From Citrus sinensis (taxonomy: Eukaryota; Streptophyta; Magnoliopsida; Sapindales; Rutaceae): a stretch of 64,000 nt of DNA. Location of the stretch: assembly GCF_022201045.2 (NCBI RefSeq), contig NC_068560.1, positions 25,437,501-25,501,500 on the forward strand, read 5' to 3'. The translations under genes and the position numbers were made by a program. Numbering within the stretch: position 1 is the stretch's first letter; each line of letters starts with the position of its first letter. Shown here one piece after another: positions 3,001 to 58,540 of this stretch. The notes under the pieces are model-generated. The model had not been told where the DNA came from and ran no database searches. It worked only from the letters and a program-made list of their open reading frames with translations.

Positions 3001-3490
3001 AGAGAACCGAGGGATCACGTGAGACACTTGGAAGAAACCTTTGAATTACTGAGGAAGTATGAAATGAAGCTAAACCCGGAGAAATGTGCATTTGGGGTCA
3101 GCTCGGGCAAATATTTGGGATTCCTAGTGAGCCACCGAGGAATCGAGGCCAACCCAGAGAAAATACGGGCAATAACAGAAATGAAATCCCCCCGAACAGT
3201 TAAGGAGGTGCAGAGCCTTACAGGAAAAGTGGCAGCATTGAACCGATTCATCTCGCGGGCCACGGATAAATGCCATCCTTTCTTCCAAACCATAAAGAAA
3301 TGGAGAAAGATGGAGTGGACATCAGAATGTGATGAGGCATTTGGGCAGCTGAATGAGTATCTGGCCCATGCCCCGTTATTATCAACTCCGAGGGAAGGTG
3401 ACCAGCTATTTTTGTACTTAGCAATCTCAAAACAAATGCGAGTTTATAAATGTTCAATTGTTTACAAAACAAATGCGAGTTTATACAAAA
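1..3490 (+). pseudogene. Broken gag-protease-RT polyprotein of element 1
   Basis: Pieces in several frames align in order with the intact polyprotein at 12756-18401. Gag runs from 1 to about 1780, with the EWYRKLPR block near 610-635 and a CKFYDTHGHTISQC zinc-knuckle region near 1450-1495. Protease lies near 1829-2377 with the active-site block read VHTGSSVDILF, so the catalytic Asp of DTGS is His. RT lies near 2540-3420 and keeps YVDDM at about 2975. Stops interrupt the frame, for example near 397, 635, 1172, 1779, 2376, 2603 and 2668. Reading stops just after the RT thumb at the start of RNase H, where the sequence passes into a duplicated 21-bp segment. It is not expressible as a functional polyprotein. 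Confidence 0.88.
3428..3485. repeat. 21-bp direct repeat at the pol deletion junction
   Basis: The same 21 bases, containing AACAAATGCGAGTTTATA, occur at 3428-3448 and 3465-3485, separated by 16 bp. They sit exactly where element 1 jumps from the start of RNase H into the 3' end of the antisense ORF. This looks like filler copied during repair of the deletion (inference). Confidence 0.75.
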
Positions 3491-3497
3491 AATAGAC

Positions 3498-4425
3498 TTA
3501 AAGATTAGGAGAGTCAACGGCTCCAGCAGCCGAAGGATCAGCAATCTCGGGAGGTGAAGGATCAGCAGTCTCAAGAGGTGGGAGATCAGCAATACCGGGA
3601 GGAGGAGGCATGGACCCTTGACCCACTTCGAAAGCACGTCCCCCAGCTTCCCCCTCCTGCACCCCATCCAAAGGAGCCTCCACCTGCTCCTTATCTCCCT
3701 GGCCGGCCTTAGCCATATATCTTTCCACTCCAGCCTCCAGCTTGCTCATGTCCAGCTCGGGGTATTCTTCCTTAAGCACAGACATGATGCACTTATAGCT
3801 GAAAGCAACCCCGGAGTTATACTCGGCATCCAGCCGATCATTCACGTCAGTGGATTTGCTTTTCTCCTCAACCAGCTGTTCATTCAGGGATTTGATCTCT
3901 CCCTCAAGGGCGGTCTTCAGAGTGTCTCTTTCACTTTGAGTAGCCTGAAGATCGGACTTCAGGTCACTCAACTCACCCTCACGTTTGGAGGAAGTGGACT
4001 CAGCAACCGCAACTTTCTCCTCTAGCTCCGTAATCTGTCTGTTCAGCTCGGCCAGCTTCTCCTTCGTGCGATCAGCAGACTCAACCCTCCTCTACCCTAT
4101 GACCAAGGTTCCTTCTCCGAGGGGGTCCGTTCGGTCCGGAACTGCTCCCCTCACCATCACCAACTCCTTCGGGGACCCCAACCCCACCGAAACTATGGTC
4201 CTCACCAGAGCCCGACGCAGGTCCACCTCTATTCCCTACTAGCTCAAGTTCGGGGGAGGGAGAAACAGCCAAAGGGCGTGGGTACTCAAGGGTATCCCTA
4301 CCATGGGAGGGGCCTACACTACTAGAGGGGTGTAAAAAATCAGTGGGTATGGACAAGTTAAGGTCTGAATCCCCTACTTCTTCGTCACTCTCATCAGCAA
4401 TTAACTTCCTCTTCCGATTTGACAT
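3498..4425 (-). pseudogene. Relic of the antisense ORF of element 1
   Basis: The - strand reading starts at ATG 4425-4423 (MSNRKRKLIADESDEE), an acidic Ser-rich N-terminus like that of the antisense ORF at 8896. A second open piece (3971-3498) gives a coiled coil followed by YNSGVAFSYKCIMSVL, which aligns with YDQGLRHSYRCIMAVL in the intact ORF, then a Pro/Ala-rich acidic tail. The globular middle of the intact protein is missing and the two pieces are not in one frame. The order and strand relative to gag-pol match the intact element. Confidence 0.75.
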
Positions 4426-5019
4426 ACCGGAATCCCAAAAGAAAACAGAGAAAACTCGAGTATACGAACACAAAAAGGGCAACACAGAACCCAATCAACA
4501 ACAACCAGAGGAGAAGTTAAAAGCAATACCTGGATTGAACTAGCACTGATGGCGCGGCCGTGGTAGAGAAAAAACCCAGCAAGTGGATACTCCATACACG
4601 AGAAGTGTAAGCAAAGTTCAGAGAGGGGGTTAGTTAACGACGGAGAGATGAATAACAAAACGATGAAGATGTAAGTCTAGGGATTTGAAATGAAAAGAGG
4701 AAAATGAAAGCATTTAAGTGATGGGGATGCCAGCTCACTCACCGGATATTGAGGACAGATAGCCCATCGTTTCAAATTTCAAATACGAAGAGTCTAGAGA
4801 TGCCATGTCACTAACCATTACAAGAGCCCAGGATAGATGTAAGCCCAGATATGCAATGGACATGCTCATTTAGGCCCATGCTCAGGTCAGAATCTCTCCA
4901 GAATAAAAATGGTATCTCAAGTCCGTCCTAGTAAATAGAAGACCAGATGAGAAGCTCCCCGGGTTGGTGAGATTTGACTATCAGTTTCTACTCTTAACTC
5001 ATTTCACTCGCCAGACCAG

Positions 5020-5034
5020 AAACTAAGGGACTGG
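5020..5034 (+). other. Polypurine tract of element 1
   Basis: The purine-rich AACTAAGGGACTGG directly precedes TGTTAAG, the presumed LTR start. The intact element has the equivalent AACTGGGGGACCGG just before its 3' LTR on the - strand. Plus-strand DNA synthesis would start here. Confidence 0.6.
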
Positions 5035-5532
5035 TGTTAAGTACATAAAAGTACCAGGTCGGTCATGCTACTACTTCCGCCCCGGCATAGATCACCTCAG
5101 CCAATTGGTATGAGCAGAACACGGGGATAAACATGAGCCAACCAGAGACGAGTACCGGCCAGGGTAATGTACCGACTAGAATCATATACCGAGCCGACAC
5201 CAATTCCCCAAAAAAGCGGGAATACGATCCCACAGAATCACGGTAGTTGCGCTTTTCCCAGAACCGTTGCGAGAGACACGAGATCTCACGTTTGCCCACA
5301 ATGTAGCAGTTAAAGTCCCATGAGGGGCTACCACTACCCGAGAAAGGGGGGATGAAGGGTAAATGAAAACGTGGGACAGCGGCTATAAAAGGAGAAGAAA
5401 TCGATGAAGAAAGGACAGAAAAAATTGAGAGAGGGAAAACGCAGTCAAATTGCAATCAGACCATTTTCTTGCAAACTTCGAATAAATTAGAAACCATTCT
5501 TGAATCCAAATTGCACTGTTTTCCCGTAAACA
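5035..5532 (+). mobile_element. 3' LTR of element 1
   Basis: It starts with TG immediately after the polypurine tract and contains a plain TATA box in the + direction (TATAAAA at 5384-5390, inside GCGGCTATAAAAGG). The end is placed at ...GTAAACA (5532); a few bases further is possible. There is no second LTR in the window to compare. The sequence is not closely similar to the LTR of element 2, so the two are different families or long diverged. Confidence 0.6.
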
Positions 5533-5580
5533 CCTTGTGCTAACTTAGGTATATATAAAATAAAATAAAAACAAAAAAGA

Positions 5581-6555: not shown

Positions 6556-7168
6556 CTGACGTCAAAGTGTTGTCACAGGTTTCATTATAATGCAACTTCT
6601 TAATTAAATAACTTGCTCCAAAAAAAAAAATTAAATAACTTGCTCCATACTTTGTAGTTTGTATTAACTGTGTCATATATATGCTGCTTAAGTCATGAGA
6701 CTAGCCTCCAATAAAAATACACCAATCTTTATTCTCTATTTTTGTTCGAATTGAATTCACCCCGATGTAAAACGCATTCACGACTCCTGTGTATCAAAGA
6801 GATTGGACTATTTACAACCTTAGTCATTTATTAAAATAACTTTTATTTAACTTTCTTTTGTATCAAAGTGATTGATAAGCACCCATTTTTCTTTGACAAT
6901 TAAAGCATGAATTGAGATCTCTAATGTTGATTTGAGTTTTTTTTTTCAAATTAAAAACAATTTTATATCCACATAAAACTAGTAAATGTTCATAATAATA
7001 ACGATTGACCGCGAAATATTAATCCCATGCCTTACTAAATTTAGTTATATAACTTATTGCGAATCAAACAACATTAATTATTCTTATTAAAAAACCATAA
7101 ATAAGTGCCTGGCTTACTTTACATTCATGCCAACACATTATTTTATTCTAAAATAATAATAATAATAA

Positions 7169-7326
7169 TCATGGATTTTCATTAGGGATCCATTTTGGTG
7201 GCTCATCGCCGCAGCTACAAAATCCATCCACGCACTTGGGTTTTCCATGCGGCTCGCGAGCACATTTAGGTACGCAATCCGCGTCGGTTTTGCAAGAGTC
7301 GTCTCCATGAACTGCTTCAGGTAAAC
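7169..7326 (-). CDS. Cysteine-rich secreted peptide, exon 2 (mature peptide)
   Basis: This exon and exon 1 (19375-19432) join to a 71-residue protein. The acceptor is TTGTGTAG at 7334-7327; the phase-1 junction makes a Gly codon; the stop is TGA at 7171-7169. The mature part has six cysteines, C-x5-C-x3-C-x9-C-x4-C-x1-C, starting DDSCKTDADCVPKC and ending in an acidic, Pro-rich tail. That pattern is typical of defensin-like or nodule-type cysteine-rich peptides, which are secreted and act outside the cell in defence or signalling; the specific role here is unknown. The intron is 12,048 bp because element 2 (11,639 bp plus a 5-bp duplication) sits in it; without it the intron would be about 404 bp. 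Both splice sites and the frame are intact, so the gene may still work if the long intron is removed. Confidence 0.78.
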
Positions 7327-7632
7327 CTACACAATTAATCAATTAATCATTGTTAATTTTGGGTAAATATTTTGATAAAATGAAATTTGTATTGGGGGAA
7401 AAGATATTATTAAACATTTAAAATTTTAAACTATCAAAATGAAAGAATATTAATTAATTAGTGAAAAGAGGGTATATTCTTCTTTAATTGTTACTTACAA
7501 TTTGACCCAATTAGCTAGCAGTATTTTTAAAAAATCACCCATAAAGTCCTATCTCAATTTTTAATTTAAATTAGATAAAAATATTATTTTATCTTAAAAA
7601 AATTAGATCCAACAACTACGAAAATATCAATG

Positions 7633-7637
7633 TCTTA
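7633..7637. repeat. Target-site duplication TCTTA (left copy)
   Basis: TCTTA directly abuts TGTTGATGCG; the same five bases follow the right LTR at 19277-19281. Five bases is the normal duplication for Ty3/gypsy integrases. Confidence 0.93.
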
Positions 7638-8434
7638 TGTTGATGCGAGATTCCGGTTCTCCTCGTTCTACGATCAGGATCTCTGCTCGATCAACTTCGT
7701 CACGACCAGGAGGTCTCCTCGCCAGGCTTCTTCTCCAGAGGTCCCTGCGTACACAGATAAGTCAGAGTACGCCGGTTGTTTTCTCGGCGCAAACCCTCCG
7801 ACGCTCAAGTCAGATATGAAGGTTCGGGAAAAGCTTGCCACAGGTCTTATGGCGTTTCTTGTGGTTTTTTCCCCTTTTCTCAAGAATGCCAACCCTTTTA
7901 CCTTCGTTGGCTACCTTTTTATAGGCTTCCTCTGAATCTCAGTCTTCCGCTCTTTTCGAGACGGTATGGGACTCCAACTGCTGCGTTATGGGCAAAACAT
8001 GGGATCTAGCGTGTTACGCCACGGTTCAGGGGAAAGCGTGGCTGCCATGGCTCTGTGAGACCTTGCGTGTTACGCCACGGTTCTGGGGAAAGTGTGGCTG
8101 TCATGGCTCTGTGAGATCTTGCGTGTTACGTCGCGGTTCTGGGGAAAGCGTGGCTGTTGTGCCTAGATTCTCGTGCTGGAGAGCACGTCTTGCCAACTGC
8201 CGTCGACCGGGTCTCCTCGCCTCTCGATCTCTAGCCGGAATGGCCTTATGCCTTTTATAGGAATTGGCCTCGCGGACGACAACATCGTGGACGAGCAGGA
8301 TGTTTCTGCTCCTGTTCTTCCACGCGCCAGGCTTTAACGGAACACACCGGTTCGCAGAACTCCGCCATCAGATATCTGCTCGTCATTCCTGGTCCCTTCG
8401 ACGCATTTGTCCCAAACAGTATCCCTCCCAAACA
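7638..8434 (-). mobile_element. 3' LTR of element 2
   Basis: This 797-bp LTR matches 18480-19276 without gaps. Candidate TATA boxes on the - strand are at 8259-8253 (in CCAATTCCTATAAAAGG) and 7923-7917. The ends are TGTTTGGG and CATCAACA in transcription direction. Confidence 0.95.
8009..8162. repeat. Three tandem 56-bp repeats inside the 3' LTR
   Basis: Units start GCGTGTTACG at 8009, 8065 and 8121; the third is cut after about 42 bp. Units differ by a few substitutions. The other LTR has the same array at 18851-19004. Confidence 0.85.
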
Positions 8435-8450
8435 CCGGTCCCCCAGTTTC
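8435..8450 (-). other. Polypurine tract of element 2
   Basis: On the - strand AACTGGGGGACCGG lies immediately upstream of the 3' LTR start TGTTTGGG. It is the primer for plus-strand synthesis. Confidence 0.75.
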
Positions 8451-8895
8451 TGGTGTTGGGTAATGTAGTGGACCAGCAGTAGAAACTCGATAGTACTCGC
8501 CCGCGTGGGTTTGGAAAAGGCTGCCAGGAGTCATGTCGCATTTAATTGCGGACGAGGTGACGTGGCAGAAATCCCCCCCTCCATTTGAATTTCAAACCGA
8601 CGGTTACGAGATCCTCGGGATTCGGCGCAGTTATATGCTGGCAACCCAAGAGTCCGTCCTCATTTGGAAAGCCAAATCCTCTCGAACGGCATATTCACCA
8701 TTCACTCTGTCTCCGTCTACGTCTCTGTTTCTCCGGCAAAGAAGTTCCGGCACGAAGCCCCCATCCTTGCCTTTCTCCGATTGGAGCAGTACTTCAGGTA
8801 TTACTTCTCTCTCCTCGGTCTCGGATAGTTTATAGATAACTTCTTTTTTCTTTCGTTTGGGTAGTAGTTGGTGGTGTTGTGGTAGAGTTTAGGGA
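8451..8895 (+). promoter_or_regulatory. Leader/promoter candidate of the antisense ORF
   Basis: This 445-bp stretch between the 3' LTR and the antisense ORF has no gene of its own. It contains TGACGTGG near 8558-8566 (an ACGT-core motif), an AT-rich TTATATG near 8630, and CAG|GTATTA at 8795-8803 with a matching acceptor GTGGTAG ending at 8885, so an 88-bp intron in the 5' leader is possible. All of this is inferred from motifs only. Confidence 0.35.
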
Positions 8896-10968
8896 ATGTC
8901 GAAGGGCAAAGAGAAGGTCATTGAGGTTGACGACGACGAGTTGGACTTCCCACCTAGTCTGCTCGCTGATCCCGCTTTTGATCCCGGGATCCCCTTAGAG
9001 CCCATTAGGTCTAGTGTTGGTACTAGCGCTAGGAGGATGTCTCCCCAAACAACCTCCTCGAGCGACAGTAGCGATGAAGAAGGATCTTCTGGATCGGAGA
9101 ACACCTTGAGTGAGGGTCAAGGGGATGATTCTGGTGAGGCGTCCCCATCAGGAGCGCCGCGACCAGAAGGGAGGAGTAGAATAGGAGGTAGAGCCCTATC
9201 GCGGGACTACGCTATTGATTACATGACGTGCACGACCACGTTTGATGAGCTCGAGGACCTCCGGCTGAGGTATAGCATTCCTGGTGAAATACTTCTCAAG
9301 GTCCCAGGAAAGAAGGATGCTCCTAGCCGGCCTCCTAGGGGATATGTTACCCTGTACCTGGATAGCTTTAAGTACGGGCTGAGATGTCCCTTGCAACCTT
9401 ACTTTGCCCGGGTACTTAGCGGGCTAAATCTATCTCCTGGTCAGCTGAACCCAAATGGTTGGAGAGTGCTCTCTGGTCTGTTCATATTGTGGGACAGATG
9501 TTGTCAAAGCGAGCCCACAATTGATGAGGTGAAGCACCTGTACCAGCTAAAGAGCAGCCCCAAAGATGCCGGTTGGTACTACTTCCAATCTAGCACCAAG
9601 ACCAGGAAACCCATAACCGACCTCCCTACTGGTGGTGGTGGGAATTGGAAGAGAAAGTTCTTTTTTGCTGGGGGTCCTTGGGGTCAGGTCGCACAAATGG
9701 ACGGGAAGGATTACCGGGTCCCGCCCCGTTTCACGGTCCCAGGTTGCCTGCTCGCTTCAGATGTCTTGTATCCATAATTGTCCTTGTTTTATTGGCTTGT
9801 CTCTAACCAAGTGTCTGTTTGTGTTGTAGTTTCTTGGGGTGTCCACTTCCCGCTCAATCCTGACCAGCTCAAACGGGTCGAGGCGGTACGGGCCAATTCT
9901 TGCTCGAGCCGAGAACTGTTAAGCACATACAACTTGCTCGAGTCTCGCTTGATACTTCCTGGCCATAGGATGGAGGACGCTGTGATTGGGGCCCTGACCC
10001 GAAAACGTTCTCGACCTCCAACCACGAAGGGGGACCAGAGTAAGGATGCCCCTACTGCAAAGCGGGCCAACGTCGTGCAGCAGGCCCCACCCTTGAAGAT
10101 TTTACCTCCAGCCCCTGAAAAAGTTGGGGAAGCCAGTGGAGCAGCCACAGGTCCTGCTACCTCTTCTCTTCCTGTCGGGCCTCGATCTCGCTTACCCGAC
10201 AGCCGAGCAGAACATCTGGTCCCTTACCTCAATGAGTTAACCAAACTCGTGAGCAAGAAGGAGCTGGAGGATTTTGACGGCCGCACCTTGGGTGAGCTGG
10301 TGGGGGCCATGCAGCATAGCGCCTTCCACCTCAGCTGCATGACCACCTATTACAAGGCTAAGGTGGGCCGCTACGACCGGAAGATGAAGGAAGATATTCA
10401 ATCGGCGACGACCAGAGCTGACGTTGCCGAGAAGAAAGCAGGGGAGCTGAACCTCGAGAACCTGAAGCTGATAGAGCAAGAATCACTTGCTCAAGCAAAA
10501 GCCATTACCCTCGAGGAGGAGCTTACCAAGGTCAAGGAGGATCTGCAAAGGCAGATGGCTATGTACGCGGCTCAGCTCGAATCTCTCCGCGACTCCCACC
10601 GAGCCCAGGTCGAGAACTTGGAGAGGGAAGTCGAGAACTTAGAGAGAGAAGTCGACAACCAGTACGACCAGGGACTTCGGCATTCCTACCGTTGCATCAT
10701 GGCTGTCCTCGGGAAGCGACACCCTGATCTGAAGATGGATGACCTTGCAGCTGGTGTTGCTCAGCATATGGACGAGGAGGCGGCCAAGGAAGATGCCGAG
10801 GGGTTAGAGCCGATCGTGATTGAGGAGGGTAACTCTCCTCCTCGTGCAGTCCCTGCTGATGTTGGCGAGGCGAGCACCCCCCCGGACGCAACTGGTGATA
10901 CCCCCCCTGCACCCGAGGAGGTCCAGCCAACCGATGCTGCTCGGCTCACTGATCCACCATCTTTTTGA
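8896..10968 (+). CDS. Spliced antisense ORF of element 2 (Tat-type additional ORF, coiled coil)
   Basis: Exon 1 is 8896-9742 and exon 2 9830-10968. The donor CCCAG|GTTGCC and acceptor TTGTGTTGTAG enclose an 87-bp intron; both ends are phase 1 and the junction reads RFTVP-V-SWGVHFPL. The product is 661 residues. Residues 1-100 are acidic and Ser-rich (SSSDSSDEEGSSGSE); about 105-310 form a globular part (RDYAIDYMTCTTTFDELEDL onward); about 450-590 are a charged coiled coil with repeated Glu-Asn-Leu-Glu-Arg-Glu-Val units, then YDQGLRHSYRCIMAVL and an acidic Pro-rich tail. It runs opposite to gag-pol, downstream of pol. Extra ORFs, some antisense, are known from Tat-lineage elements; their function is not established. 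Without splicing, exon 1 ends at a stop at 9775 and exon 2 has no ATG before 9969, which supports the intron. Confidence 0.75.
9743..9829 (+). other. 87-bp intron in the antisense ORF
   Basis: GT-AG ends, a T-rich 3' part (CTGTTTGTGTTGTAG) and matching phase on both sides. The intron contains the only stop codon that separates the two reading frames. Confidence 0.7.
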
Positions 10969-11026
10969 TATATTTCTTCTTGTATTGTAATGAACAACGT
11001 TTATGAAATTTATCCCCTCTGTTAGC

Positions 11027-11037
11027 CATTAATAAAA
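11027..11037 (+). terminator. Possible poly(A) signal of the antisense ORF
   Basis: AATAAAA lies about 60 bp after the stop of the antisense ORF in an AT-rich stretch, just before the tandem array. Motif only. Confidence 0.35.
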
Positions 11038-11098
11038 ATGTTGTTGATTACTATCTCGTGTCGTACTTATGAATTAATTTTCGTCTGAAACGCTGATC

Positions 11099-12617
11099 GC
11101 TTCTGTCTCGCCGTAAGACAGGCTTTGAGACTTGGTGAGGCCTTTGCGTGCCGTAGAGAACTTTCCGAATGCCTTGGAGTCTGCTCGCCTTCTCGCGAAC
11201 GAGCAGATCCTGGCATGCTGGGCTTTTGTCTGGCCCTAAGACAGGCTTTGAGACTTTGTCGAGCCTTTGCATGCCTTGGGAATCTTCTTCAAACGATTTG
11301 GATTCTGCTGCCTTCTCGTGGCCGAGCAGATCCTGGCATGCTTGGCTTCTGTCTCGCCATAAGACAGGCTCTGAGACTTGACGAGCCTTTGCATGCCTTA
11401 GTATTTTTTTCAAACGATTTGGATTCTGCTGCCTCCTCGTGGCCGAGCAGATCCTGGCATGCTTGGCTTCTGTCTCGCCATAAGACAGGCTCTGAGACTT
11501 GGCGAGCCTTTGCATGCCTTAGGATTTTCTTCAAACGACTTGGATTCTGCTGCCTTCTCGTGGCCGAGCAGATCCTGGCATGCTTGGCTTCTGTCTCGCC
11601 ATAAGACAGGCTCTGAGACTTGGCGAGCCTTTGCATGCCTTAGGATTTTCTTCAAACGATTCGGATTCTGCTGCCTTCTCGTGGCCGAGCAGATCCTGGC
11701 ATGCTTGGCTTCTGTCTCGCCATAAGACAGGCTCTGAGACTTGGCGAGCCTTTGCATGCCTTAGGATTTTCTTCAAACGATTCGGATTCTGCTGCCTTCT
11801 CGTGGCCGAGCAGATCCTGGCATGCTTGGCTTCTGTCTCGCCATAAGACAGGCTCTGAGACTTGGCGAGCCTTTGCATGCCTTAGGATTTTCTTCAAACG
11901 ATTTGGATTCTGCTGCCTTCTCGTGGCCGAGCAGATCCTGGCATGCTTGGCTTCTGTCTCGCCATAAGACAGGCTCTGAGACTTGGCGAGCCTTTGCATG
12001 CCTTAGGATTTTCTTCAAACGATTTGGATTCTGCTGCCTTCTCGTGGCCGAGCAGATCCTGGCATGCTTGGCTTCTGTCTCACCATAAAACAGGCTCTGA
12101 GACTTGACGAGCCTTTGCATGCCTTAGGATTTTCTTCAAACGACTTGGATTCTGCTGCCTTCTCGTGGCCGAGCAGATCCTGGCATGCTTGGCTTCTGTC
12201 TCGCCATAAGACAGGCTCTGAGACTTGGCGAGCCTTTGCATGCCTTAGGATTTTCTTCAAACGACTTGGATTCTGCTGCCTTCTCGTGGCCGAGCAGATC
12301 CTGGCATGCTTGGCTTCTGTCTCGCCATAAGACAGGCTCTGAGACTTGGCGAGCCTTTGCATGCCTTAGGATTTTCTTCAAACGATTTGGATTCTGCTGC
12401 CTTCTCGTGGCCGAGCAGATCCTGGCATGCTTGGCTTCTGTCTCGCCATAAGACAGGCTCTGAGACTTGACGAGCCTTTGCATGCCTTAGGATTTTCTTC
12501 AAACGATTCGGATTCTGCTGCCTTCTCGTGGCCGAGCAGATCCTGGCATGCTTGGCTTCTGTCTCGCCATAAGACAGGCTCTGAGACTTGACGAGCCTTT
12601 GCATGCCTTAGGATTTT
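11099..12617. repeat. 121-bp tandem array, about 12.5 units
   Basis: The period is 121 bp by the recurrence of CTTCTGTCTCGCCATAAGAC and GGCCGAGCAGATCCTGGCAT. The first two units differ most from the rest, which are nearly identical apart from a few positions (for example GATTTGGATT, GACTTGGATT or GATTCGGATT). Each unit has a short stem-loop CTGTCT-CGCCATA-AGACAG. It lies between pol and the antisense ORF. Both strands show repeated open frames of 88 and 115 codons, a by-product of the repeat period and not genes. Confidence 0.93.
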
Positions 12618-12755
12618 TTTCGGTTTCAAGCGAATAAAATTCGTCGACGTTACATTAATGGCAGGATTTGACTTACATGAAATTGTTCGGACATAAAACA
12701 TAAAAATAAAAGATAAACAGCATGAGCAGAAATTGCTTTAAAATGTGAGCAAGTC

Positions 12756-15700
12756 TTACTGGAAGTATTTTCGGAGGTGTGCTGCGTTCCATGGGCGTTT
12801 CACTTCGGGGCCGTCCGCGCGAACCAGCTTGTAAGCTCCGGGCCCCGCTATCTGCTTGACTCTATACGGCCCTTCCCAATTCGGTCCCAGCACTCCTTGA
12901 GTCGAATCTTTAGTGCTCTGATTCACTCTTCTCAGTACCCAGTCTCCGACCCTGAATTGCCGTATGTTCACCTTCTGGTTATAATACCGAGCAACCCTCT
13001 GTTGGTAAGTGACTGATCGCTCGGCTGCTTGTTCCCTCCTCTCCATTAGCAGATCAAGATTCAAACATATCTGCTCGTCGTTCTCCTGTTCATTGAAATG
13101 ATCTGTCCGGTGTGTGGTCGTTCCTACCTCAGCCGGCACGACCACTTCATGTCCGAAAGCTAAAGCGAACGGTGTCTCCCCCGTTGCGGTTTTGTGGGTT
13201 GTTCTGTATGCCCATAGCACACCTGACAGCTCGTCAACCCACGCACCCTTTTTTGCTCCGAGCCTGGTTTTCAGAAGCCTCTTGACTGTCTTGTTGGCTG
13301 CTTCTACTTGTCCATTCGATTGAGGGTGAGCAGGCGAGCAATACTTCAGCTCTATCCCGAGGTTCTGGCAGAAATCCCTGAAGCTGTGATTATCGAACTG
13401 CCTGCCATTATCCGTTACCGAGGCATATGGGATCCCGTATCGACAGACCAGGTTTCTCCACACGAAGTCTGTTGTTTTCTTCTCTGTGATCCTGCTAAGG
13501 GCTTCTACCTCTATCCACTTCGTGAAGTAATCTATAGCGACTATTGCATGTGTTGCTGCTCCTCGTCCCTTTGGCAATGGGCCGATCAGATCAATTCCCC
13601 ATTGAGCGAATGGCCAAGGGGAGGCCATGGAGGTGAGCTTCTCTGGTGGTTGGTTAGAGAAATTTGCAAAACTCTGGCAGCTTGCACAGCTCCTGGTCTT
13701 CCTTTGCGCATCCTGGTGCATCGTCGGCCAGAAATATCCCTGCCTTAGAACCTTGTGGGCCAGGGACCTCCCGCCAGAATGATTTCCGCAAATTCCTTCA
13801 TGTACTTCCCTCAGCACGTAATCCGCGTCGTCATCGTCCAAACACCGAAGGAACGGTAATGTATATCCTCGCCGATACAGTACCCCATCGATCATCGTGT
13901 ATCTCGAGGCCTGAGCTCTAATCTTCCGAGCCCGTAGCTTATCTGGTGGTAAGACCCCGTCTCTAAGGTATGAAACTATCGGGTCCCTCCACGAGCTTTT
14001 TTGTTCTATCCGCAACACCCCCAAATTTTGCTCGATACTCGGGCGAGACTTCACTTCTAGGGGGACCGACTTTGGCATTTTTGGGTCGGCTACGGCTGCC
14101 ATCCTAGCCAAAATGTCTGCTCGACTATTCTGCTCCCTGGGAATTTGTATCACCTCCACTGCTTCGAACTTCCCCATTATCTGCCTGACTATCCTTAGGT
14201 ACTGTTCCATCTTCTCCTCTCTTGGTTGGAATCTTTCACTGACATGATTCGCAACCAGCTGGGAATCGGTTCTGATCTTAACTCTGTCCGCTTTCACGGC
14301 CCTAGCCAATTCCAGCCCTGCTATCAAGGCTTCATATTCTGCCTGGTTATTTGTGGCTGCAAATTCCAACTTTACAGCATAAGAGATCTCCTCCCCCTCT
14401 GGGCCTTCCAGGACAATCCCTGCTCCTGAACCCCGCTCTCCTGATGACCCATCCACAGATATCTGCCATACTTGAGTTTCGTCGTTGCCTATATCTGCAT
14501 CTTGCTGATCCAAGCATACTTCGGGCTCCGCGAACTCAGCTACGAAATCGGCCATTGCCTGGGCCTTTATCGCCGCGCGGGGTTTATAGTCTATGTCGAA
14601 TTCGCTCAGCTCTACAGTCCATTTGACGAGCCGACCAGAGGCATCTGGCTTGTGCAGAATTTGACGCAATGGCTGGTTGGTTATTACCGAGACCGGGAAT
14701 GCTTGAAAGTACGGCCTCAACTTCCGAGCAGCAACCACAAGGGCCAGTGCCCATTTCTCCATCGTTGGGTATCTGGTCTCAGCGTCGAGCAGGGCCTTGC
14801 TGGTGTAGTATATCGGATACTGAATTCCTTCTTCCTCTCTCACTAGAACGGAACTGGCGGCCCGATCAGATACCGCCAAATACAGATTCAACTTGTCCCC
14901 ATCCCTCGGTGTGGACAGTAGCGGAGCTTGCTGCAAGTAATGCTTCAAGTTCCGGAAGGCTTCCTCGCATTCTGGGGTCCATTCCGTTTTCTTTCCCCTC
15001 CTTATCACTTGAAAGAATGGCTGACACTTATCTGTAGCCTTGGATATGAATCTGCTCAACGCCGCCAACCTCCCCGTGAGGCTCTGCATCTCCTTCAGGT
15101 TTCGAGGAGACGTCATTTGCACAATCGCCTGGATCTTCTCGGGATTTGCTTCAATCCCCCTATGGCTCACCATGAATCCCAGGAATTTCCCTGACTCGAC
15201 CCCAAAAGCACACTTCTCCGGGTTGAGCTTCATCTTATACTTCCTCAAAAGCTCGAACGTCTCCTCGAGATGTCTGACATGTTCCTTCGGGATTTTGGAC
15301 TTGGTGATCATGTCGTCCACGTACACCTCCATGGTTTTCCCGATCAAGGGCTTAAAGACTTTATTCACCAGCCTTTGATAGGTGGCCCCAGCATTCTTGA
15401 GACCGAATGGCATCACCCTGTAACAGAACAGACCTTGGTTAGTGATGAAAGCCGTGCTCTCCTCATCCGGCTCGTACATGGGGATCTGGTTGTATCCCGA
15501 GAATGCGTCCATGAAGCTAAGCAGACCATGTCCAGCCGTTGAATCTACTAGCTGATCGATCTTTGGTAAAGGGAAGCTGTCTTTTGGGCACGCCTTATTG
15601 AGGTCTGTGAAATCCACACACATCCTCCACTTGCCGTTTGCCTTCTTTACCAACACCACATTTGATATCCACTCTGGGTAATTGACTTCCCGAATGAACC

Positions 15701-18401
15701 CTGCTCTCAGAAGCTTCTCCACCTCATCATTTACAGCCTCATACCTCTCCTGGTTGAAGCACCTCCTCTTCTGCCTTACTGCCCGAGCACCTTTCTTTAT
15801 TGCCAGCCTATGACATGCTACCTCTGGGTCAATCCCTGGCATGTCCTCATGTGTCCAGGCAAACACGTCGGCATGAGCCTGTAAGCATTTCACCAACTCC
15901 TGCTTTTGCTCTCCCTCAAGTCTCGACCCGATTCTGATCGTCTTTCCCGGGTTCTCTGGTCCCATGCTTACTGTTTCCAGATCCTCTACGGGTTCTTGTC
16001 TGCCAGTCTTGTTTTCCACTCGGGTATCGAGGGATGTTATCTGCATCGCCTCCCTTGCTGCCGAGGAGTAGCAGCTTCTTGCGATCCTCTGGTCTCCTCG
16101 TACCACTCCGACTACCCCATTCACCCGGTACTTCAGAGCCAGATAATGGTTGGACAGCACCGCTTTGCTCATCCTTAAAAATGGCCGACCTAGGATCATC
16201 TGGTAAGGACCTTCCTCGTCCACTACGACGAAGTCCAGTATCATTGTTCTTTCTGTCGGGGGGCTCCCGATTGTGATAGGCAGTTCGACCACGCCCAGAG
16301 GGACCAGCTTCCCTCCTCCGAACCCCTTCAAGGAGGTGTTGGTGTATTCCAACTTCCGGTCGGTTATTCCCATCTCTTCCAAAGTTGATTTAAATAGCAC
16401 ATCAACTGAGCTCCCCGTATCAACCAGTATCCGGTCAAACTTCTTGCTAGCGATCGTAGCCTTGATGACTAAAGCGTCCTCGTGGGGGTATAGAATCCCT
16501 TCCTCATCCTCATCCGTCCACATGATTGGCACTTGCCTGACCCTTGCTCGTTTGGCTGCTGGGGTGTTGAAGAGTATCTCTTTACTGGTCATGGCGTATC
16601 TGGCATAATTTTTTCTCGATCTGTTCGAATCTCCGGCCAACGTTGGGCCCCCAGCTATCACCCTCGCTGCGGGCGGCTCGCGTCTCAAGATTCCATCACT
16701 CTGCTCCCCTTCATCCGTTGTGGCCACCATCGGGAAAGTCCCATCCATAAACTCGTCCAGGTACCGATTTCTCACCAAATCTTCGACCTGGGTCTTGAGA
16801 TCTCTACACTCTGCTGTGGTATGGCCATGGGTGCCATGGAACTTACAATAACGTCCTCTATCCCTCCTGTTGGGTAGCTTTGTTATTGGTGTAGGGAGGT
16901 GCAGCAGCCCTCGACCCTTTATGGCCTCGTACACCTCATCCAGGGGCATCTTCAAGGGAGTGTACCGCCCATAGTCCTGGTTCTGGTCGACCAGATGCAC
17001 TGCTCTTTCTCTGTTTGCCCCACTGTGAGTTGGGGGCGGTGGGAGTGCTTCTGGTCTGCTCGTCCTGCTACCGTGGGAATGTTGATGAAGATCGCCGGAT
17101 GCCGAATCATGTCTTCTCCAAGGCTCCCTAGCTGGGGAACGAGGAGGTGGCGCCCTGCTGCGCTGATACTGTGGCGGCCTCTGATGAGGCTGGTAAGCAA
17201 TTACCCTACCTCCTGCTCCACTACCGGAGATCTGGTGGTCCCTCCTCCTGATCGGCCCATTAGTTGGTAATGCTTTCTTCTCTTTCCTCCCTAACCCTTC
17301 CAACTGGTCTGTCTTGATCCGTGCAGCCTTCTCCTCCTCAATCTCGATGTCTCTTTTAGCCTGTTCGTATGCGGCTGCATACGTTTGAATAGCTGGGCTT
17401 CTCAAATTGTACCACAGCCTTCCTATCTTCACCCCTTCTTTCAGTCCCCTTAACGCCTGAGGGTGGTTGAAGGCTCCCAAGTCGAGGACAGCCCGATGAA
17501 ACCTCTTGATGAATTCCCGAAGGGTTTCTTGCTCCCCCTGTTTCATGCTCTTCAGCTCCATCATGTCATCTTCCGGTGACATTGCCCCACTAAACTGCTC
17601 TGCGAATTCCTGGCACATCTGCTCGAAGGTTTTTATGCTGCCCCGAGGAAGTTTCCTGTACCATTCTCGTGCACGTCCCTCAAGGGATAGTGGGAACACC
17701 CTGCACCTTTGGGATGGAGATAATCCCTGTACCCCCGTTATGTCGTTGAAGCGCTCTATGTGCATCAGCGGGTCAGTTCTTCCCGAGTATCTGAGGTCGG
17801 GGAGGCAGAAATCTCTCGGAATAACTGCCCTCATGATCTCTGCTGCGAGCGGTGATTCCCCGTCCAGCATTATCCTCCAACCAGGGGCTCTGTTCCTCCC
17901 TTGCATGTCGTTAATTATTTGCGCTAGCCTTCGCACTTCCTCCTCCAGCTGTCCTGCGCGACTAGGGTCGCGCGCTGCAGCTTGATCCCGCTCTCGCTCT
18001 ACATCATGTAAGTGTTGCCTCAGTTCTGTTTCCTCTGCATTCACCACCCCGTCGCCCCCGTCACAAGTCTGTCTTACCGGGGACTGCTCTCTTTCTCTAT
18101 GAAATTCTCCCCGCAGAGGTACGTTACCTCTCTCACCACCAAATCTCCCAGCGGTTTGACTTCTCTCCGCACTATCGGTACCTGGTGCCGCTCCACCGCC
18201 TCTCACCCTTCCCTCTTGGGTTACCCTTCGCTCGTTTCGCAGCTCATGCAGGATGGTTGTCAAGGTTTCCATCTGCTTTTCCATTCGCTCCATCCGGTCG
18301 AACATGACTTTTTCCCGTGCTTCGCTGATTACCTCCCTCAGCGTCACGGAATCGTTAAGCCTTATGTCACCCCCTTGTGCGCTACTTCCTCCTATCTCCA
18401 T
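12756..18401 (-). CDS. Gag-Pol polyprotein of element 2, 1881 aa, intact
   Basis: A single uninterrupted frame from ATG 18401 to TAA 12756. Approximate order by residue: coiled N-terminal part; gag capsid about 180-370 (EWYRKLPRGS); zinc-knuckle-like CKFHGTHGHTTAEC at 519; aspartic protease with DTGSS, Asp at 661; reverse transcriptase with YVDDM at 1027-1031; Ty3-type RNase H about 1175-1270; a second, archaeal-type RNase H about 1310-1440 starting at WQISVDGSS; integrase with a His/Cys zinc region about 1535-1570 and catalytic Asp about 1602, Asp about 1667 and Glu about 1702; and a GPY/F-like end (GPNWEGPYRV). No chromodomain. The double RNase H places it in the Tat lineage. The protein is processed to build virus-like particles and to copy and integrate the element. 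No frameshift or stop was seen. Confidence 0.95.
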   Translation of the reverse strand: MEIGGSSAQGGDIRLNDSVTLREVISEAREKVMFDRMERMEKQMETLTTILHELRNERRVTQEGRVRGGGAAPGTDSAERSQTAGRFGGERGNVPLRGEFHREREQSPVRQTCDGGDGVVNAEETELRQHLHDVERERDQAAARDPSRAGQLEEEVRRLAQIINDMQGRNRAPGWRIMLDGESPLAAEIMRAVIPRDFCLPDLRYSGRTDPLMHIERFNDITGVQGLSPSQRCRVFPLSLEGRAREWYRKLPRGSIKTFEQMCQEFAEQFSGAMSPEDDMMELKSMKQGEQETLREFIKRFHRAVLDLGAFNHPQALRGLKEGVKIGRLWYNLRSPAIQTYAAAYEQAKRDIEIEEEKAARIKTDQLEGLGRKEKKALPTNGPIRRRDHQISGSGAGGRVIAYQPHQRPPQYQRSRAPPPRSPAREPWRRHDSASGDLHQHSHGSRTSRPEALPPPPTHSGANRERAVHLVDQNQDYGRYTPLKMPLDEVYEAIKGRGLLHLPTPITKLPNRRDRGRYCKFHGTHGHTTAECRDLKTQVEDLVRNRYLDEFMDGTFPMVATTDEGEQSDGILRREPPAARVIAGGPTLAGDSNRSRKNYARYAMTSKEILFNTPAAKRARVRQVPIMWTDEDEEGILYPHEDALVIKATIASKKFDRILVDTGSSVDVLFKSTLEEMGITDRKLEYTNTSLKGFGGGKLVPLGVVELPITIGSPPTERTMILDFVVVDEEGPYQMILGRPFLRMSKAVLSNHYLALKYRVNGVVGVVRGDQRIARSCYSSAAREAMQITSLDTRVENKTGRQEPVEDLETVSMGPENPGKTIRIGSRLEGEQKQELVKCLQAHADVFAWTHEDMPGIDPEVACHRLAIKKGARAVRQKRRCFNQERYEAVNDEVEKLLRAGFIREVNYPEWISNVVLVKKANGKWRMCVDFTDLNKACPKDSFPLPKIDQLVDSTAGHGLLSFMDAFSGYNQIPMYEPDEESTAFITNQGLFCYRVMPFGLKNAGATYQRLVNKVFKPLIGKTMEVYVDDMITKSKIPKEHVRHLEETFELLRKYKMKLNPEKCAFGVESGKFLGFMVSHRGIEANPEKIQAIVQMTSPRNLKEMQSLTGRLAALSRFISKATDKCQPFFQVIRRGKKTEWTPECEEAFRNLKHYLQQAPLLSTPRDGDKLNLYLAVSDRAASSVLVREEEGIQYPIYYTSKALLDAETRYPTMEKWALALVVAARKLRPYFQAFPVSVITNQPLRQILHKPDASGRLVKWTVELSEFDIDYKPRAAIKAQAMADFVAEFAEPEVCLDQQDADIGNDETQVWQISVDGSSGERGSGAGIVLEGPEGEEISYAVKLEFAATNNQAEYEALIAGLELARAVKADRVKIRTDSQLVANHVSERFQPREEKMEQYLRIVRQIMGKFEAVEVIQIPREQNSRADILARMAAVADPKMPKSVPLEVKSRPSIEQNLGVLRIEQKSSWRDPIVSYLRDGVLPPDKLRARKIRAQASRYTMIDGVLYRRGYTLPFLRCLDDDDADYVLREVHEGICGNHSGGRSLAHKVLRQGYFWPTMHQDAQRKTRSCASCQSFANFSNQPPEKLTSMASPWPFAQWGIDLIGPLPKGRGAATHAIVAIDYFTKWIEVEALSRITEKKTTDFVWRNLVCRYGIPYASVTDNGRQFDNHSFRDFCQNLGIELKYCSPAHPQSNGQVEAANKTVKRLLKTRLGAKKGAWVDELSGVLWAYRTTHKTATGETPFALAFGHEVVVPAEVGTTTHRTDHFNEQENDEQICLNLDLLMERREQAAERSVTYQQRVARYYNQKVNIRQFRVGDWVLRRVNQSTKDSTQGVLGPNWEGPYRVKQIAGPGAYKLVRADGPEVKRPWNAAHLRKYFQ

Positions 18402-18457
18402 TGCCTTTCGCTTACTCCACCCCTCTTCTTGCTATCGACAGAAGCTTTTTGCTCTGG

Positions 18458-18479
18458 ATCCCCACAGACGGCGCCAAAA
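18458..18479 (-). other. tRNA primer-binding site of element 2
   Basis: On the - strand, just inside the 5' LTR, the sequence reads TGGCGCCGTCTGTGGGGA. The first nine bases match the complement of the plant tRNA-Asp 3' end (TGGCGCCGT), followed by four mismatches and a further GGGGA match. tRNA-Asp is a plausible primer; a tRNA search is needed to decide. Confidence 0.7.
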
Positions 18480-19276
18480 TGTTGATGCGAGATTCCGGTT
18501 CTCCTCGTTCTACGATCAGGATCTCTGCTCGATCAACTTCGTCACGACCAGGAGGTCTCCTCGCCAGGCTTCTTCTCCAGAGGTCCCTGCGTACACAGAT
18601 AAGTCAGAGTACGCCGGTTGTTTTCCCGGCGCAAACCCTCCGACGCTCAAGTCAGATATGAAGGTTCGGGAAAAGCTTGCCACAGGTCTTATGGCGTTTC
18701 TTGTGGTTTTTTCCCCTTTTCTCAAGAATGCCAACCCTTTTACCTTCGTTGGCTACCTTTTTATAGGCTTCCTCTGAATCTCAGTCTTCCGCTCTTTTCG
18801 AGACGGTATGGGACTCCAACTGCTGCGTTATGGGCAAAACATGGGATCTAGCGTGTTACGCCACGGTTCAGGGGAAAGCGTGGCTGCCATGGCTCTGTGA
18901 GACCTTGCGTGTTACGCCACGGTTCTGGGGAAAGTGTGGCTGTCATGGCTCTGTGAGATCTTGCGTGTTACGTCGCGGTTCTGGGGAAAGCGTGGCTGTT
19001 GTGCCTAGATTCTCGTGCTGGAGAGCACGTCTTGCCAACTGCCGTCGACCGGGTCTCCTCGCCTCTCGATCTCTAGCCGGAATGGCCTTATGCCTTTTAT
19101 AGGAATTGGCCTCGCGGACGACAACATCGTGGACGAGCAGGATGTTTCTGCTCCTGTTCTTCCACGCGCCAGGCTTTAACGGAACACACCGGTTCGCAGA
19201 ACTCCGCCATCAGATATCTGCTCGTCATTCCTGGTCCCTTCGACGCATTTGTCCCAAACAGTATCCCTCCCAAACA
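18480..19276 (-). mobile_element. 5' LTR of element 2
   Basis: This is the promoter-bearing copy for - strand transcription. Candidate TATA boxes are at 19101-19095 (with CCAAT just upstream) and 18765-18759. It contains the 56-bp triple repeat at 18851-19004. It is identical to the other LTR except C at 18626 as far as I can see. Confidence 0.95.
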
Positions 19277-19281
19277 TCTTA
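19277..19281. repeat. Target-site duplication TCTTA (right copy)
   Basis: Matches 7633-7637 exactly and directly follows the LTR end CCCAAACA. Confidence 0.93.
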
Positions 19282-19374
19282 TTTAAAATACAAAGACTAA
19301 CTGGATAGCTCGCTCAAATTATAATAAAGACTACGCAATTATTTATTTATAAAATATATACGCACACTACATAC

Positions 19375-19432
19375 CAGAAGCAATGAAGAGCAGGACGACG
19401 AAGAAAGCAAATTTGAGGGAAGTTGTCTTCAT
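19375..19432 (-). CDS. Cysteine-rich secreted peptide, exon 1 (signal peptide)
   Basis: The first exon codes MKTTSLKFAFFVVLLFIAS plus the first base of a Gly codon, then donor GTATGT. It has a short Lys-containing start and a long hydrophobic core, a typical secretory signal; cleavage probably falls in the first residues of exon 2. Exon 2 is at 7169-7326, 12 kb away across the inserted retrotransposon. A one-exon signal plus one-exon mature peptide layout is usual for plant cysteine-rich peptides. Confidence 0.78.
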
Positions 19433-19483: not shown

Positions 19484-19490
19484 TTTTATA
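19484..19490 (-). promoter_or_regulatory. TATA box of the cysteine-rich peptide gene
   Basis: TATAAAA on the - strand, about 52 bp upstream of the ATG at 19432, a fitting distance for a short 5' leader. Confidence 0.55.
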
Positions 19491-56803: not shown

Positions 56804-58540
56804 TGTAAATGTAGTGAGCCTAGGATTCTTGTCTTTCCATCAACGTGAGTCCAATTTCACATGGTTTCAGAGCTCAGTAAAAATTAAAGTTTTATCTTTT
56901 TTTATTTTGTTTAGCAAACATGGCTGATGGAAAATCATCGGATAACAAGCAGGAGAATGATCCTTTCCTGGTACATCCATCAGATAGTCCAACAATTGTT
57001 TTGGTTTCTCCTCCACTCACTGGTAATAAGTATGGAACGTGGGTAAGAACGATGATAATGGCTTTGCAAGTGAGGAACAAACTCGGTTTTGTTGATGGGA
57101 CCATTACGAAACCGGATGATGATGATGGTGGTAAATGGCAACGTTGCAACGATCCGGTTCGTTCTTGGGTGTTGAACTCGATCTCAAGCAAACTTGCATG
57201 TAGTGTCTTGTATGCACAGTCAGCAAGAGAGTTGTGGCTGGATTTGCAGGAACGTTTTCAGCAGACTAACGCGTCAAAAATTTATGAACTCAGACAAGCT
57301 ATCTCCTCTTTATGACAAGGTGATGTATCTGTCCACCATTATTACCGTAGAATGAAAAGGCTTCGGGAAAAATTAATTTCATTGCAACCTGTAGAACCAT
57401 GTGTTAGTGGGAATGCAAAAGTTGTCAATGAATTACAGCGACGAGACTTTGGAATGGAATTCCTTCAGGGTCTGCATGACAGATATGCGGCAGTGAGAAG
57501 TCGTATTTTTTTGATGGATCCTTTTCCTAAGGCACATGAGATTTTCGCACTTGTAAAAGAAGAAGAAACACAACAAGATCTTCATGCATTAGCAGGACCC
57601 TTGAAAGCAGGAGCTCTTGCTATACAAAATCGGTAGCCCCTGCAACACAATTCCCTTGAAAATTGAAAGGGTAGCGATATTTCACCTGAGAGCAGAGGTT
57701 CAAATCTGAATGGTAGTTCTGGGAATAATCAAAGTAGTCAGACGTGTGAACATTGTGGGAAATTCGGGCATACAAAATTCAACTGTTTTGATCTGAATGG
57801 CTATCCAACAAATTGGAGGAAGCGCAGATGAGGGAGTGAAGTGAATCCTAAAACACCAGCCACTGTAGCCTGCAAAGAACAACAGGATCTTATTTTCACT
57901 CAACAGCAGTATCAAATTCTCCTAGCCACATTGTACTTTGGCAGTTTACAATTTGTGAGTCTTGCAGGTATAGCCCTTTATTATTATTATATTTATTTCC
58001 ACACTGATGTTACTGACCATATATGTTGTTAGTTAGATTTCTTTGATTCCTATTAACTATGTCATGTACCTCTTCGTGTTCAATTGCCTGTGCTACAGTT
58101 TCCCTGTCACTCATATGGGGTCTCTTTTTTGCAAGATTTTCTACTAAAGAGATTTTTTACATTCTGAGTTTTAAATTCAATTTACTGTCACTTAGCCATT
58201 TAACCAAACCAAACAAATATCAAATAATCTTTTCTTCTGATTCCTGTTAATTTTAGGACCTGTACATGAAGGTTGGCCATGGTAGGCATTGTGTTCCTGC
58301 AGCATCCTCTTTTCATTCCCAAATAACCTCAACATGAGATTGATCTTTGGCGTTGTTGCCGACTTGGGCACCCTTTTCTTGGACTTCTAAAATTGTTTTC
58401 AGAGACTTATCCTATGGTTAATTTGCGATTCTTGTTGTAAAGCAAAACAAATTAGAACGTCTATTTTTCATTGGCAATATTAAAACTCCTTTCGAATTAG
58501 TCCGTTGTGAAGTTTGGGTTCCATTTTCTATCATATAAGT
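56804..58540 (+). mobile_element. Truncated Ty1/copia retrotransposon
   Basis: A short LTR end (56804-56861) is followed by a primer site TGGTTTCAGAGC (56862; one mismatch to the tRNA-Met type) and gag from ATG 56921. Downstream, decayed protease and integrase pieces remain (FHTDVTDHIC near 58000, where DSGATDHIC-type sequence is expected; RLGHPFLGLLK near 58365). RT, RNase H and the 3' LTR are missing; at about 58540 it changes to FRL 3' flank. Confidence 0.8.
56921..57835 (+). pseudogene. Copia gag, interrupted
   Basis: It reads MADGKSSDNKQENDPFLVHP, with the copia gag signature NKYGTWVRTMIMAL, ELWLDLQERF and SVHHYYRRMKRL. A stop at 57313 and a shift near 57636 break it. The CCHC knuckle CEHCGKFGHTKFNC is at 57745-57786. 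Confidence 0.85.

What the first reader, a model, noticed from the sequence alone, without database searches (positions are those of the whole stretch)
7169..19432. Young retrotransposon sits in the intron of a cysteine-rich peptide gene
Two - strand exons 12 kb apart join in phase across consensus splice sites (G|GTATGT and TGTGTAG) to give a signal peptide plus a six-cysteine mature peptide. The 11.6-kb element lies wholly inside the intron, same strand, leaving a roughly 404-bp ancestral intron. Unless both exons are recognised as one gene, annotation would miss it. The insertion could silence, truncate or re-regulate the peptide, since the LTR carries TATA and poly(A) signals in the same direction.
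Basis: partly seen in the sequence, partly recalled or inferred. Interest (0 to 1): 0.78.

Follow-up and report, generated by a model that had tools for sequence, protein, structure and literature searches.

The report
Jumping gene inside citrus peptide gene
A recently landed 11.6-kb retrotransposon sits in the only intron of a small cysteine-rich peptide gene in what looks like a citrus genome, and a sister gene nearby carries a separate, older insertion in the same intron and lacks a splice site.

Summary
Two minus-strand exons (19432-19375, 7326-7169) join in phase 1 to a 71-aa precursor: hydrophobic leader plus six-cysteine domain. Between them lies an 11,639-bp LTR element (7638-19276; 797-bp LTRs, 1 mismatch; TSD TCTTA), leaving a 404-bp ancestral intron. 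The element has Retand hallmarks and belongs to a young family. Beyond the finding: a paralog 0.3 Mb away has a separate, older, antisense Retand-type element (10.8 kb; LTRs 3.0% apart; TSD ACATA; empty site visible in a sister gene) in the same intron, and its splice acceptor is missing. I read the young insertion as likely to cut full-length mRNA, but no expression data were available. The LTR has two TATA boxes and no canonical poly(A) hexamer (such hexamers do occur elsewhere in the intron). LTR-started transcripts could not give the peptide with its leader. The peptide resembles legume NCRs; kinship is unproven.

The parts
19375..19432 (-). exon 1: start codon and hydrophobic leader (signal-peptide type, judged by eye), donor G|GTATGT
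   Evidence: leader similarity to relatives
7169..7326 (-). exon 2: six-cysteine mature domain and stop, acceptor TGTGTAG|GT
   Evidence: Pfam PF07127; one match in genome
7327..19374 (-). present intron, 12,048 bp, phase 1 (ancestral part 404 bp, 22% GC)
19485..19490 (-). TATAAA of the peptide gene, 58 bp upstream of the ATG
   Evidence: sequence
7142..7147 (-). AATAAA downstream of the stop codon of the peptide gene
   Evidence: sequence
7638..19276 (-). Retand-type LTR retrotransposon, 11,639 bp, same strand as the gene
18480..19276 (-). 5' LTR (797 bp)
7638..8434 (-). 3' LTR (797 bp, 1 mismatch to the 5' LTR)
7633..7637 (.). target-site duplication TCTTA, copy 1
19277..19281 (.). target-site duplication TCTTA, copy 2
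18458..18479 (-). primer-binding site region TTTTGGCGCCGTCTGTGGGGAT next to the 5' LTR (extent approximate)
8435..8447 (-). polypurine tract ACTGGGGGACCGG (extent approximate)
12756..18401 (-). gag-pol open frame, 1,881 aa (gag, protease, RT, RNase H, integrase)
8896..10968 (+). antisense open frames; the first (8896-9777) carries Transposase_28/TRP28 (PF04195), the second (9778-10968) continues the frame after a stop
11099..12621 (.). 121-bp tandem array, 12.6 copies, between pol and the 3' LTR

Best explanation
A two-exon gene for a secreted-type six-cysteine (defensin-like, NCR-like) peptide took a young Retand LTR retrotransposon into its single phase-1 intron, in sense orientation, 98 bp after the donor. 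Shown: gene structure, element anatomy, the clean target-site duplication, its youth, paralogs with a short uninterrupted intron, and an independent older insertion in the same intron of a paralog that now lacks its splice acceptor. Inferred: the 12-kb intron, probably silenced chromatin, lowers the yield of correctly spliced mRNA by premature ending or mis-splicing inside the element. The gene still looks intact mainly because too little time has passed for decay; the older paralog shows the expected later stage.
For: Exons, phase, splice sites, TSD, LTRs. Paralogs: nine uninterrupted phase-1 introns of 165, 298, 237, 280, 122, 78, 106, 163 and 141 bp. Youth: 1 of 797 LTR differences; at the 4-5e-9 per site per year used for Citrus (PMC7145672, passages) about 125-157 ky, 95% range about 3-874 ky. 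Family burst: 13 LTR pairs formed by 26 of the 30 loci cut out, 1-7 differences, each of the 13 with a 5-bp repeat at its ends. Older sister insertion: 10,794 bp, LTR 21/693 differences, TSD ACATA, empty site in a sister gene, acceptor missing in an 11-bp gap. If the intron is retained, the frame of exon 1 stops after 21 aa, inside the intron ahead of the element. Canonical AATAAA occurs in the sense strand of the intron at 19347, 15801, 15365 and 9793. Mechanism precedent: in Arabidopsis ibm2 mutants, genes with heterochromatic introns end transcripts prematurely (PMC7145194, Introduction).
Against: No RNA data and no methylation data. [quoted passage not shown] The LTR itself has no AATAAA or ATTAAA. 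The older paralog's missing acceptor could predate its insertion or have arisen by chance; it is one case.
Confidence: 0.62

Rival explanations
1. The insertion is tolerated: the 12-kb intron is spliced out normally and peptide output is close to that of the empty allele.
For: Donor, acceptor, both exons, a TATAAA and an AATAAA are all intact. Intronic heterochromatin is common in active rice genes (PMC7145194, abstract). No AATAAA or ATTAAA lies in the LTR.
Against: Intactness is uninformative at this age. The sister gene with an old insertion lacks its acceptor. The intron grew about 30-fold (404 to 12,048 bp), against 78-298 bp in nine paralogs. Canonical hexamers lie further inside the element.
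Confidence: 0.32
2. The 3' LTR acts as a new promoter and re-regulates the peptide.
For: Two TATAAA boxes per LTR in the gene's direction; the 3' LTR ends 311 bp upstream of exon 2. ATGs at 8104, 8048 and 7542 open frames of 32, 20 and 15 aa that hold a phase-1 GT, so a spliced fusion to exon 2 is conceivable.
Against: A stop lies in frame just upstream of exon 2 and exon 2 holds no Met. After the second TATA only the frame at 7542 has a phase-1 GT, after one residue. Any such product would lack the leader peptide.
Confidence: 0.04
3. The two exons belong to different genes or exon 1 is a chance frame.
For: They lie 12 kb apart, and several hydrophobic leaders can raise the Pfam score over the cut-off (3 of 5 did).
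Against: Nine paralogs with the same kind of leader, phase and intron place. Exon 1 is the best of 276 candidate leaders in the window.
Confidence: 0.02

Closest known systems
Retand-lineage Ty3/Gypsy retrotransposons (PMC11963269, passages)
   Same: Long region from pol to 3' LTR, antisense ORF with TRP28 (PF04195), internal tandem array, 5-bp TSD.
   Different: No structural difference was found; the main text of that paper does not hold the word citrus, its supplement was not seen. An RT tree was not made.
Plant genes with intronic TEs (RPP7 with a COPIA-R7 insertion, oil palm intronic TE, rice heterochromatic introns; PMC7145194 abstract and Introduction; PMC7529245 search listing)
   Same: An intron carries a TE that can change transcript ends or splicing.
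   Different: Very small peptide gene; the same intron was hit twice in one gene family, once recently and once long ago; no expression or methylation data here.
[quoted passage not shown]
   Same: Leader exon plus six-cysteine exon; PF07127 over cut-off for the window peptide and one relative; NCR13 is the best solved-structure match, weak at E 0.016.
   Different: Citrus makes no nodules (recalled); 8 of 10 precursors of the citrus family fall under the cut-off or miss; reviews place NCRs in IRLC legumes, with NCR-like peptides in dalbergioids (PMC12461094, PMC7230169, passages).
Plant defensin-like (DEFL) cysteine-rich peptides and actinorhizal nodule defensins (PMC9387825, passages and one section)
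   Same: Secreted type, small, cysteine-rich; predicted helix-strand-strand.
   Different: Six cysteines here rather than the eight that PMC7230169 gives for plant defensins (passage); tissue of expression unknown.

Membership tests
Retand lineage (Ty3/Gypsy) | Gag-pol of Gypsy order with RT, RNase H, integrase | tested here: met
   gag, protease, RVT_1, RNase H, rve in one frame, integrase after RT
Retand lineage (Ty3/Gypsy) | Antisense ORF with TRP28 between pol and 3' LTR | tested here: met
   PF04195 33.6 bits, cut-off 26.2, plus strand 8896-9777; feature list from PMC11963269
Retand lineage (Ty3/Gypsy) | Pol-to-3'LTR region of about 2.9-6.6 kb, often with tandem repeats | tested here: met
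   4,321 bp; 121-bp array, 12.6 copies
Retand lineage (Ty3/Gypsy) | Placement in the RT tree of the lineage | not tested
   no reference RT set was used
NCR peptides / Nodulin_late | Pfam PF07127 over the curated cut-off | tested here: met
   36.2 bits against 30.4; but only 2 of 10 precursors of the citrus family pass, the exon-by-exon genome search had 13 matches and none over the cut-off, and weaker matches to Toxin_2 and EB (both under their cut-offs) accompany it; 0 of 5 cysteine-keeping shuffles pass
NCR peptides / Nodulin_late | Four or six regularly spaced cysteines after a signal peptide | tested here: met
   pattern C-x5-C-x3-C-x9-C-x4-C-x-C read from the sequence; the leader was judged by eye, no signal-peptide predictor was run
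NCR peptides / Nodulin_late | Expression almost only in root nodules of legumes | not testable with these tools
   no expression data; host appears to be citrus, a non-nodulating plant (recalled)
NCR peptides / Nodulin_late | Common descent with legume NCRs | not tested
   no legume NCR set was aligned; tree of ten citrus members has no well-supported fork
CS-alpha-beta (defensin-like) fold | Helix followed by two strands tied by cysteines | tested here: inconclusive

The most novel reading that the evidence does not exclude
Citrus, outside the nodulating clade, keeps a clustered NCR-type gene family (one, two or three six-cysteine domains), and the single intron of this family is a repeated landing place for Retand elements (98 and 101 bp after the donor in two genes), each insertion starting the loss of a peptide. 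The family would be a living outgroup for the origin of NCRs, with a built-in time series of intron-insertion decay.
Probability: 0.15. Interest if true: 0.62.

Novelty: new member of a known kind. Interest (0 to 1): 0.42.

Why it matters
It gives a dated pair of insertions in one intron of one small gene family, one young with everything intact and one old with the acceptor missing, plus nine uninterrupted sisters. That makes the fate of genes with intronic LTR elements testable at one locus by PCR and RNA-seq in citrus. It also shows how annotation could miss small peptide genes whose intron has been stretched 30-fold. And it points to NCR-like peptides in a plant far from nodulating legumes, relevant to the open question of where NCRs came from.

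Tried and rejected
Rejected: that the exon join is proven by the Pfam gain (3 of 5 unrelated leaders also passed the cut-off). Rejected: AATAAA or ATTAAA in the LTR. Rejected: expression of the leader-bearing peptide from the 3' LTR. Tried without use: Rfam on the window, 0 matches; squash-inhibitor family to test a cucurbit guess, 0 matches and no positive control rang, so uninformative; tree of ten citrus members, no well-supported fork; Foldseek search of PDB not answered. No relatives from other species could be reached, so the empty site of the window gene itself was not seen. Splice sites of the paralogs were chosen by eye; no splice predictor was run.

In print: the titles and abstract starts listed by the searches showed no paper on this locus or on late-nodulin peptides of citrus. 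Several of these searches matched far more papers than the 12-15 listed (for example 700, 138, 111). The two papers holding both 'late nodulin' and 'citrus sinensis' were opened, and the term was found only in their reference lists in the text held, one text being cut. The library lacks most subscription journals.

Not counted among the relatives with both exons: one C2 copy whose joined frame lost the cysteines, a C4 copy with stops, two C8 copies with stops, and the other weak family matches, which were not followed up one by one.
Full report
WHAT IS THERE. The minus strand carries exon 1 at 19432-19375 and exon 2 at 7326-7169. Joined at G|GTATGT and TGTGTAG|GT they give a 71-residue precursor in phase 1. 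A TATAAA lies 58 bp upstream of the ATG and an AATAAA lies at 7147-7142, just after the stop (sequence). Between the exons sits an element from 7638 to 19276 with two 797-bp LTRs that differ at one site, TG...CA ends, and TCTTA on both sides. Without it and one TSD copy the intron is 404 bp and 22% GC. The gag-pol frame runs on the same strand as the gene.

WHICH GENOME. The window is C5:25437501-25501500 of a 299.7-Mb genome with 11 contigs. The nine large contigs are 24.8-52.3 Mb, and the other two are 0.63 and 0.13 Mb. Nine chromosomes, about 300 Mb, chromosome 3 longest fits Citrus (recalled). A PYL1 frame in this genome is identical over 196 of 196 residues to the solved chain labelled CSPYL1; that this is the sweet-orange protein is recalled. 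I therefore treat it as Citrus, most likely sweet orange or a close relative.

IS IT ONE GENE. Nine paralogs were found, each with a hydrophobic leader exon, a phase-1 intron and a second exon; in eight the second exon is cysteine-rich, in the ninth (C4:24150642) only the last three cysteines of the domain remain. The introns are: C5:25430688 165 bp; C5:25432286 298 bp; C5:25111735 237 bp; C5:25133994 280 bp; C4:24153613 122 bp; C4:24150642 78 bp; C4:24187722 106 bp; C4:24164064 163 bp; C2:1333314 141 bp. Their splice sites were chosen by eye. Two of these genes (25430688 and 25432286) lie within 15 kb of exon 2, just left of the window. They are paralogs, not the same gene in another species. 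Exon 1 is the best match to the leaders of three C4 relatives among 114 minus-strand and 162 plus-strand candidates in the window. The joined peptide scores 36.2 bits for Nodulin_late against 25.5 for exon 2 alone. A control tempers this: 3 of 5 unrelated hydrophobic leaders also pass the cut-off, while 0 of 5 shuffles of the mature part that keep the cysteines pass. So the mature domain is specific, but the leader gain is not.

THE ELEMENT. It has a Gypsy-order gag-pol of 1,881 aa, the PBS and polypurine tract beside its LTRs, an antisense frame with TRP28 (PF04195) that meets a stop at 9775-9777 and continues in frame, and a 121-bp array of 12.6 copies. These are features given for Retand elements in PMC11963269 (passages). 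An RT tree was not made. The LTR search scored 40 of 769 candidate places and listed 42 matches, of which 40 span the whole LTR at 98-100% identity, so counts are lower bounds. Of 30 loci cut out, 26 form 13 pairs with 1-7 differences; four had no partner among the 30. These loci are the ones most like the window copy, so the sample leans young. The window pair, with one difference, shares the lowest value with two others. With the rates of 4-5e-9 used for Citrus (PMC7145672, passages) its age is about 125-157 ky, with a wide 95% range of about 3-874 ky.

A SECOND, OLDER CASE. A DNA search with exon 1 and the first part of the intron of the C5:25133994 gene found exon 1 and intron start of a sister at C5:25128569-25128831 (97%) and the rest of that intron at C5:25117730-25117782 (95%). 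Between them lies a 10,794-bp element (25117778-25128571) with 693-bp LTRs, 21 differences, and TSD ACATA; the gene at C5:25133994 shows the empty site ATTACATATGTAAAC. Only the two ends of this element were read, not its inside. Its LTR matches that of the older element at the left end of the window (89% over 520 bp), and it runs antisense to the gene, judged from its primer-binding site. At the same rates it is about 3.1-3.9 My old, 95% range about 1.9-5.8 My. Exon 1 keeps its frame and donor and the cysteine exon keeps its frame, but an 11-bp gap against the sister gene takes out the acceptor. Thus 2 of 11 family members with both exons found carry a Retand-type element in the same intron, at 98 and 101 bp after the donor. 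As a rough inference, with more than 30,000 elements in eight genomes (PMC7145672 abstract), about 80 kb per element, the other ten introns (about 1.9 kb in all, the older insert left out) would be expected to hold about 0.02, so a second case is somewhat surprising. Local density and the reason for looking are not corrected for, and the matching distances were noticed afterwards.

WHAT IT LIKELY DOES. If the intron is retained, the frame of exon 1 ends after 21 residues, ahead of the element. In the sense strand of the intron AATAAA occurs at 19347, 15801, 15365 and 9793, but neither AATAAA nor ATTAAA lies in the LTR. A transcript started in the 3' LTR cannot give the peptide with its leader: a stop is in frame just upstream of exon 2 and exon 2 has no Met. 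Six ATGs lie between the first TATA of the 3' LTR and exon 2; those at 8104, 8048 and 7542 open frames of 32, 20 and 15 aa with a phase-1 GT, the other three do not, so a spliced fusion without the leader is conceivable. Intronic TEs in plants can cause premature ends of transcripts and depend on IBM2-type factors (PMC7145194, Introduction; PMC10241880, abstract), yet many such genes are transcribed (PMC7145194, abstract). I judge reduced full-length output more likely (about 0.62) than normal splicing (about 0.32). The intact frame is weak evidence of function, because almost no change is expected in some 210 coding bases at this age.

WHAT THE PEPTIDE IS. It is a secreted-type six-cysteine peptide of defensin-like kind. 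Only 2 of 10 citrus precursors scanned pass the Nodulin_late cut-off (window 36.2, C4:24187722 36.8 bits); five others score 26.1, 21.3, 16.7, 14.0 and 8.2, and three show no match to it (the E-value limits of these calls were 10, 1, 10 and 0.01). The exon-by-exon genome search with this family gave 13 matches at E up to 10, none over the cut-off. The window peptide also matches Toxin_2 and EB below their cut-offs, so part of the signal is the common cysteine pattern. The best solved relative is NCR13 at E 0.016, with scorpion potassium-channel toxins close behind. A single-sequence model gives helix-strand-strand with pLDDT 69.6, and the rows of its structural matches include many scorpion toxins and plant defensins at low Z. 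Two reviews place NCRs in IRLC legumes with NCR-like peptides in dalbergioids (PMC12461094, PMC7230169, passages); actinorhizal nodule defensins are proposed kin (PMC9387825, passages and one section). So 'NCR-like' describes its look; descent from or with NCRs is not shown.

VERDICT. A young TE in an intron is an ordinary kind of event. The repeated insertion in one small family and the decayed older case make it more than routine, as does an NCR-like family in citrus, but the functional effect is untested.

Noticed in passing
G000:C5:25117463-25128730 (outside the window; L072, L078, L079, L081): Paralog with an independent, older antisense Retand-type insertion in the same intron; splice acceptor missing in an 11-bp gap; insertion 101 bp after the donor against 98 bp in the window gene.
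   Followed up: yes
G000:C4:24150160-24187722: Cluster of related peptides with two (C4:24153613, C4:24187722) and three (C4:24164064) six-cysteine domains, and one (C4:24150642) that keeps only the last three cysteines and has a repeated AGEP-type tail.
   Followed up: partly
window 24729-62441: Tandem array of FRIGIDA-like genes on the plus strand with coiled-coil-looking N-terminal parts; five open frames scanned match PF07899, repeat copies about 2-10 kb apart, several apparently truncated or split.
   Followed up: partly
window 1-5549 and G000:C5:25436538-25437056: Older related LTR element with gag-pol in several separate frames; LTR stretches 95.2% identical over 519 bp.
   Followed up: partly
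window 56920-57315: Copia-type gag fragment (Retrotran_gag_3, 64.8 bits) within the FRIGIDA-like array.
   Followed up: no
window 8003-8157 and 18845-18999: 56-bp minisatellite, 2.8 copies, inside each LTR of the young element.
   Followed up: no
G000:C8:5218087-5218272 and C8:5228489-5228593: Decayed copies of the peptide family with stops inside the matched stretch.
   Followed up: no
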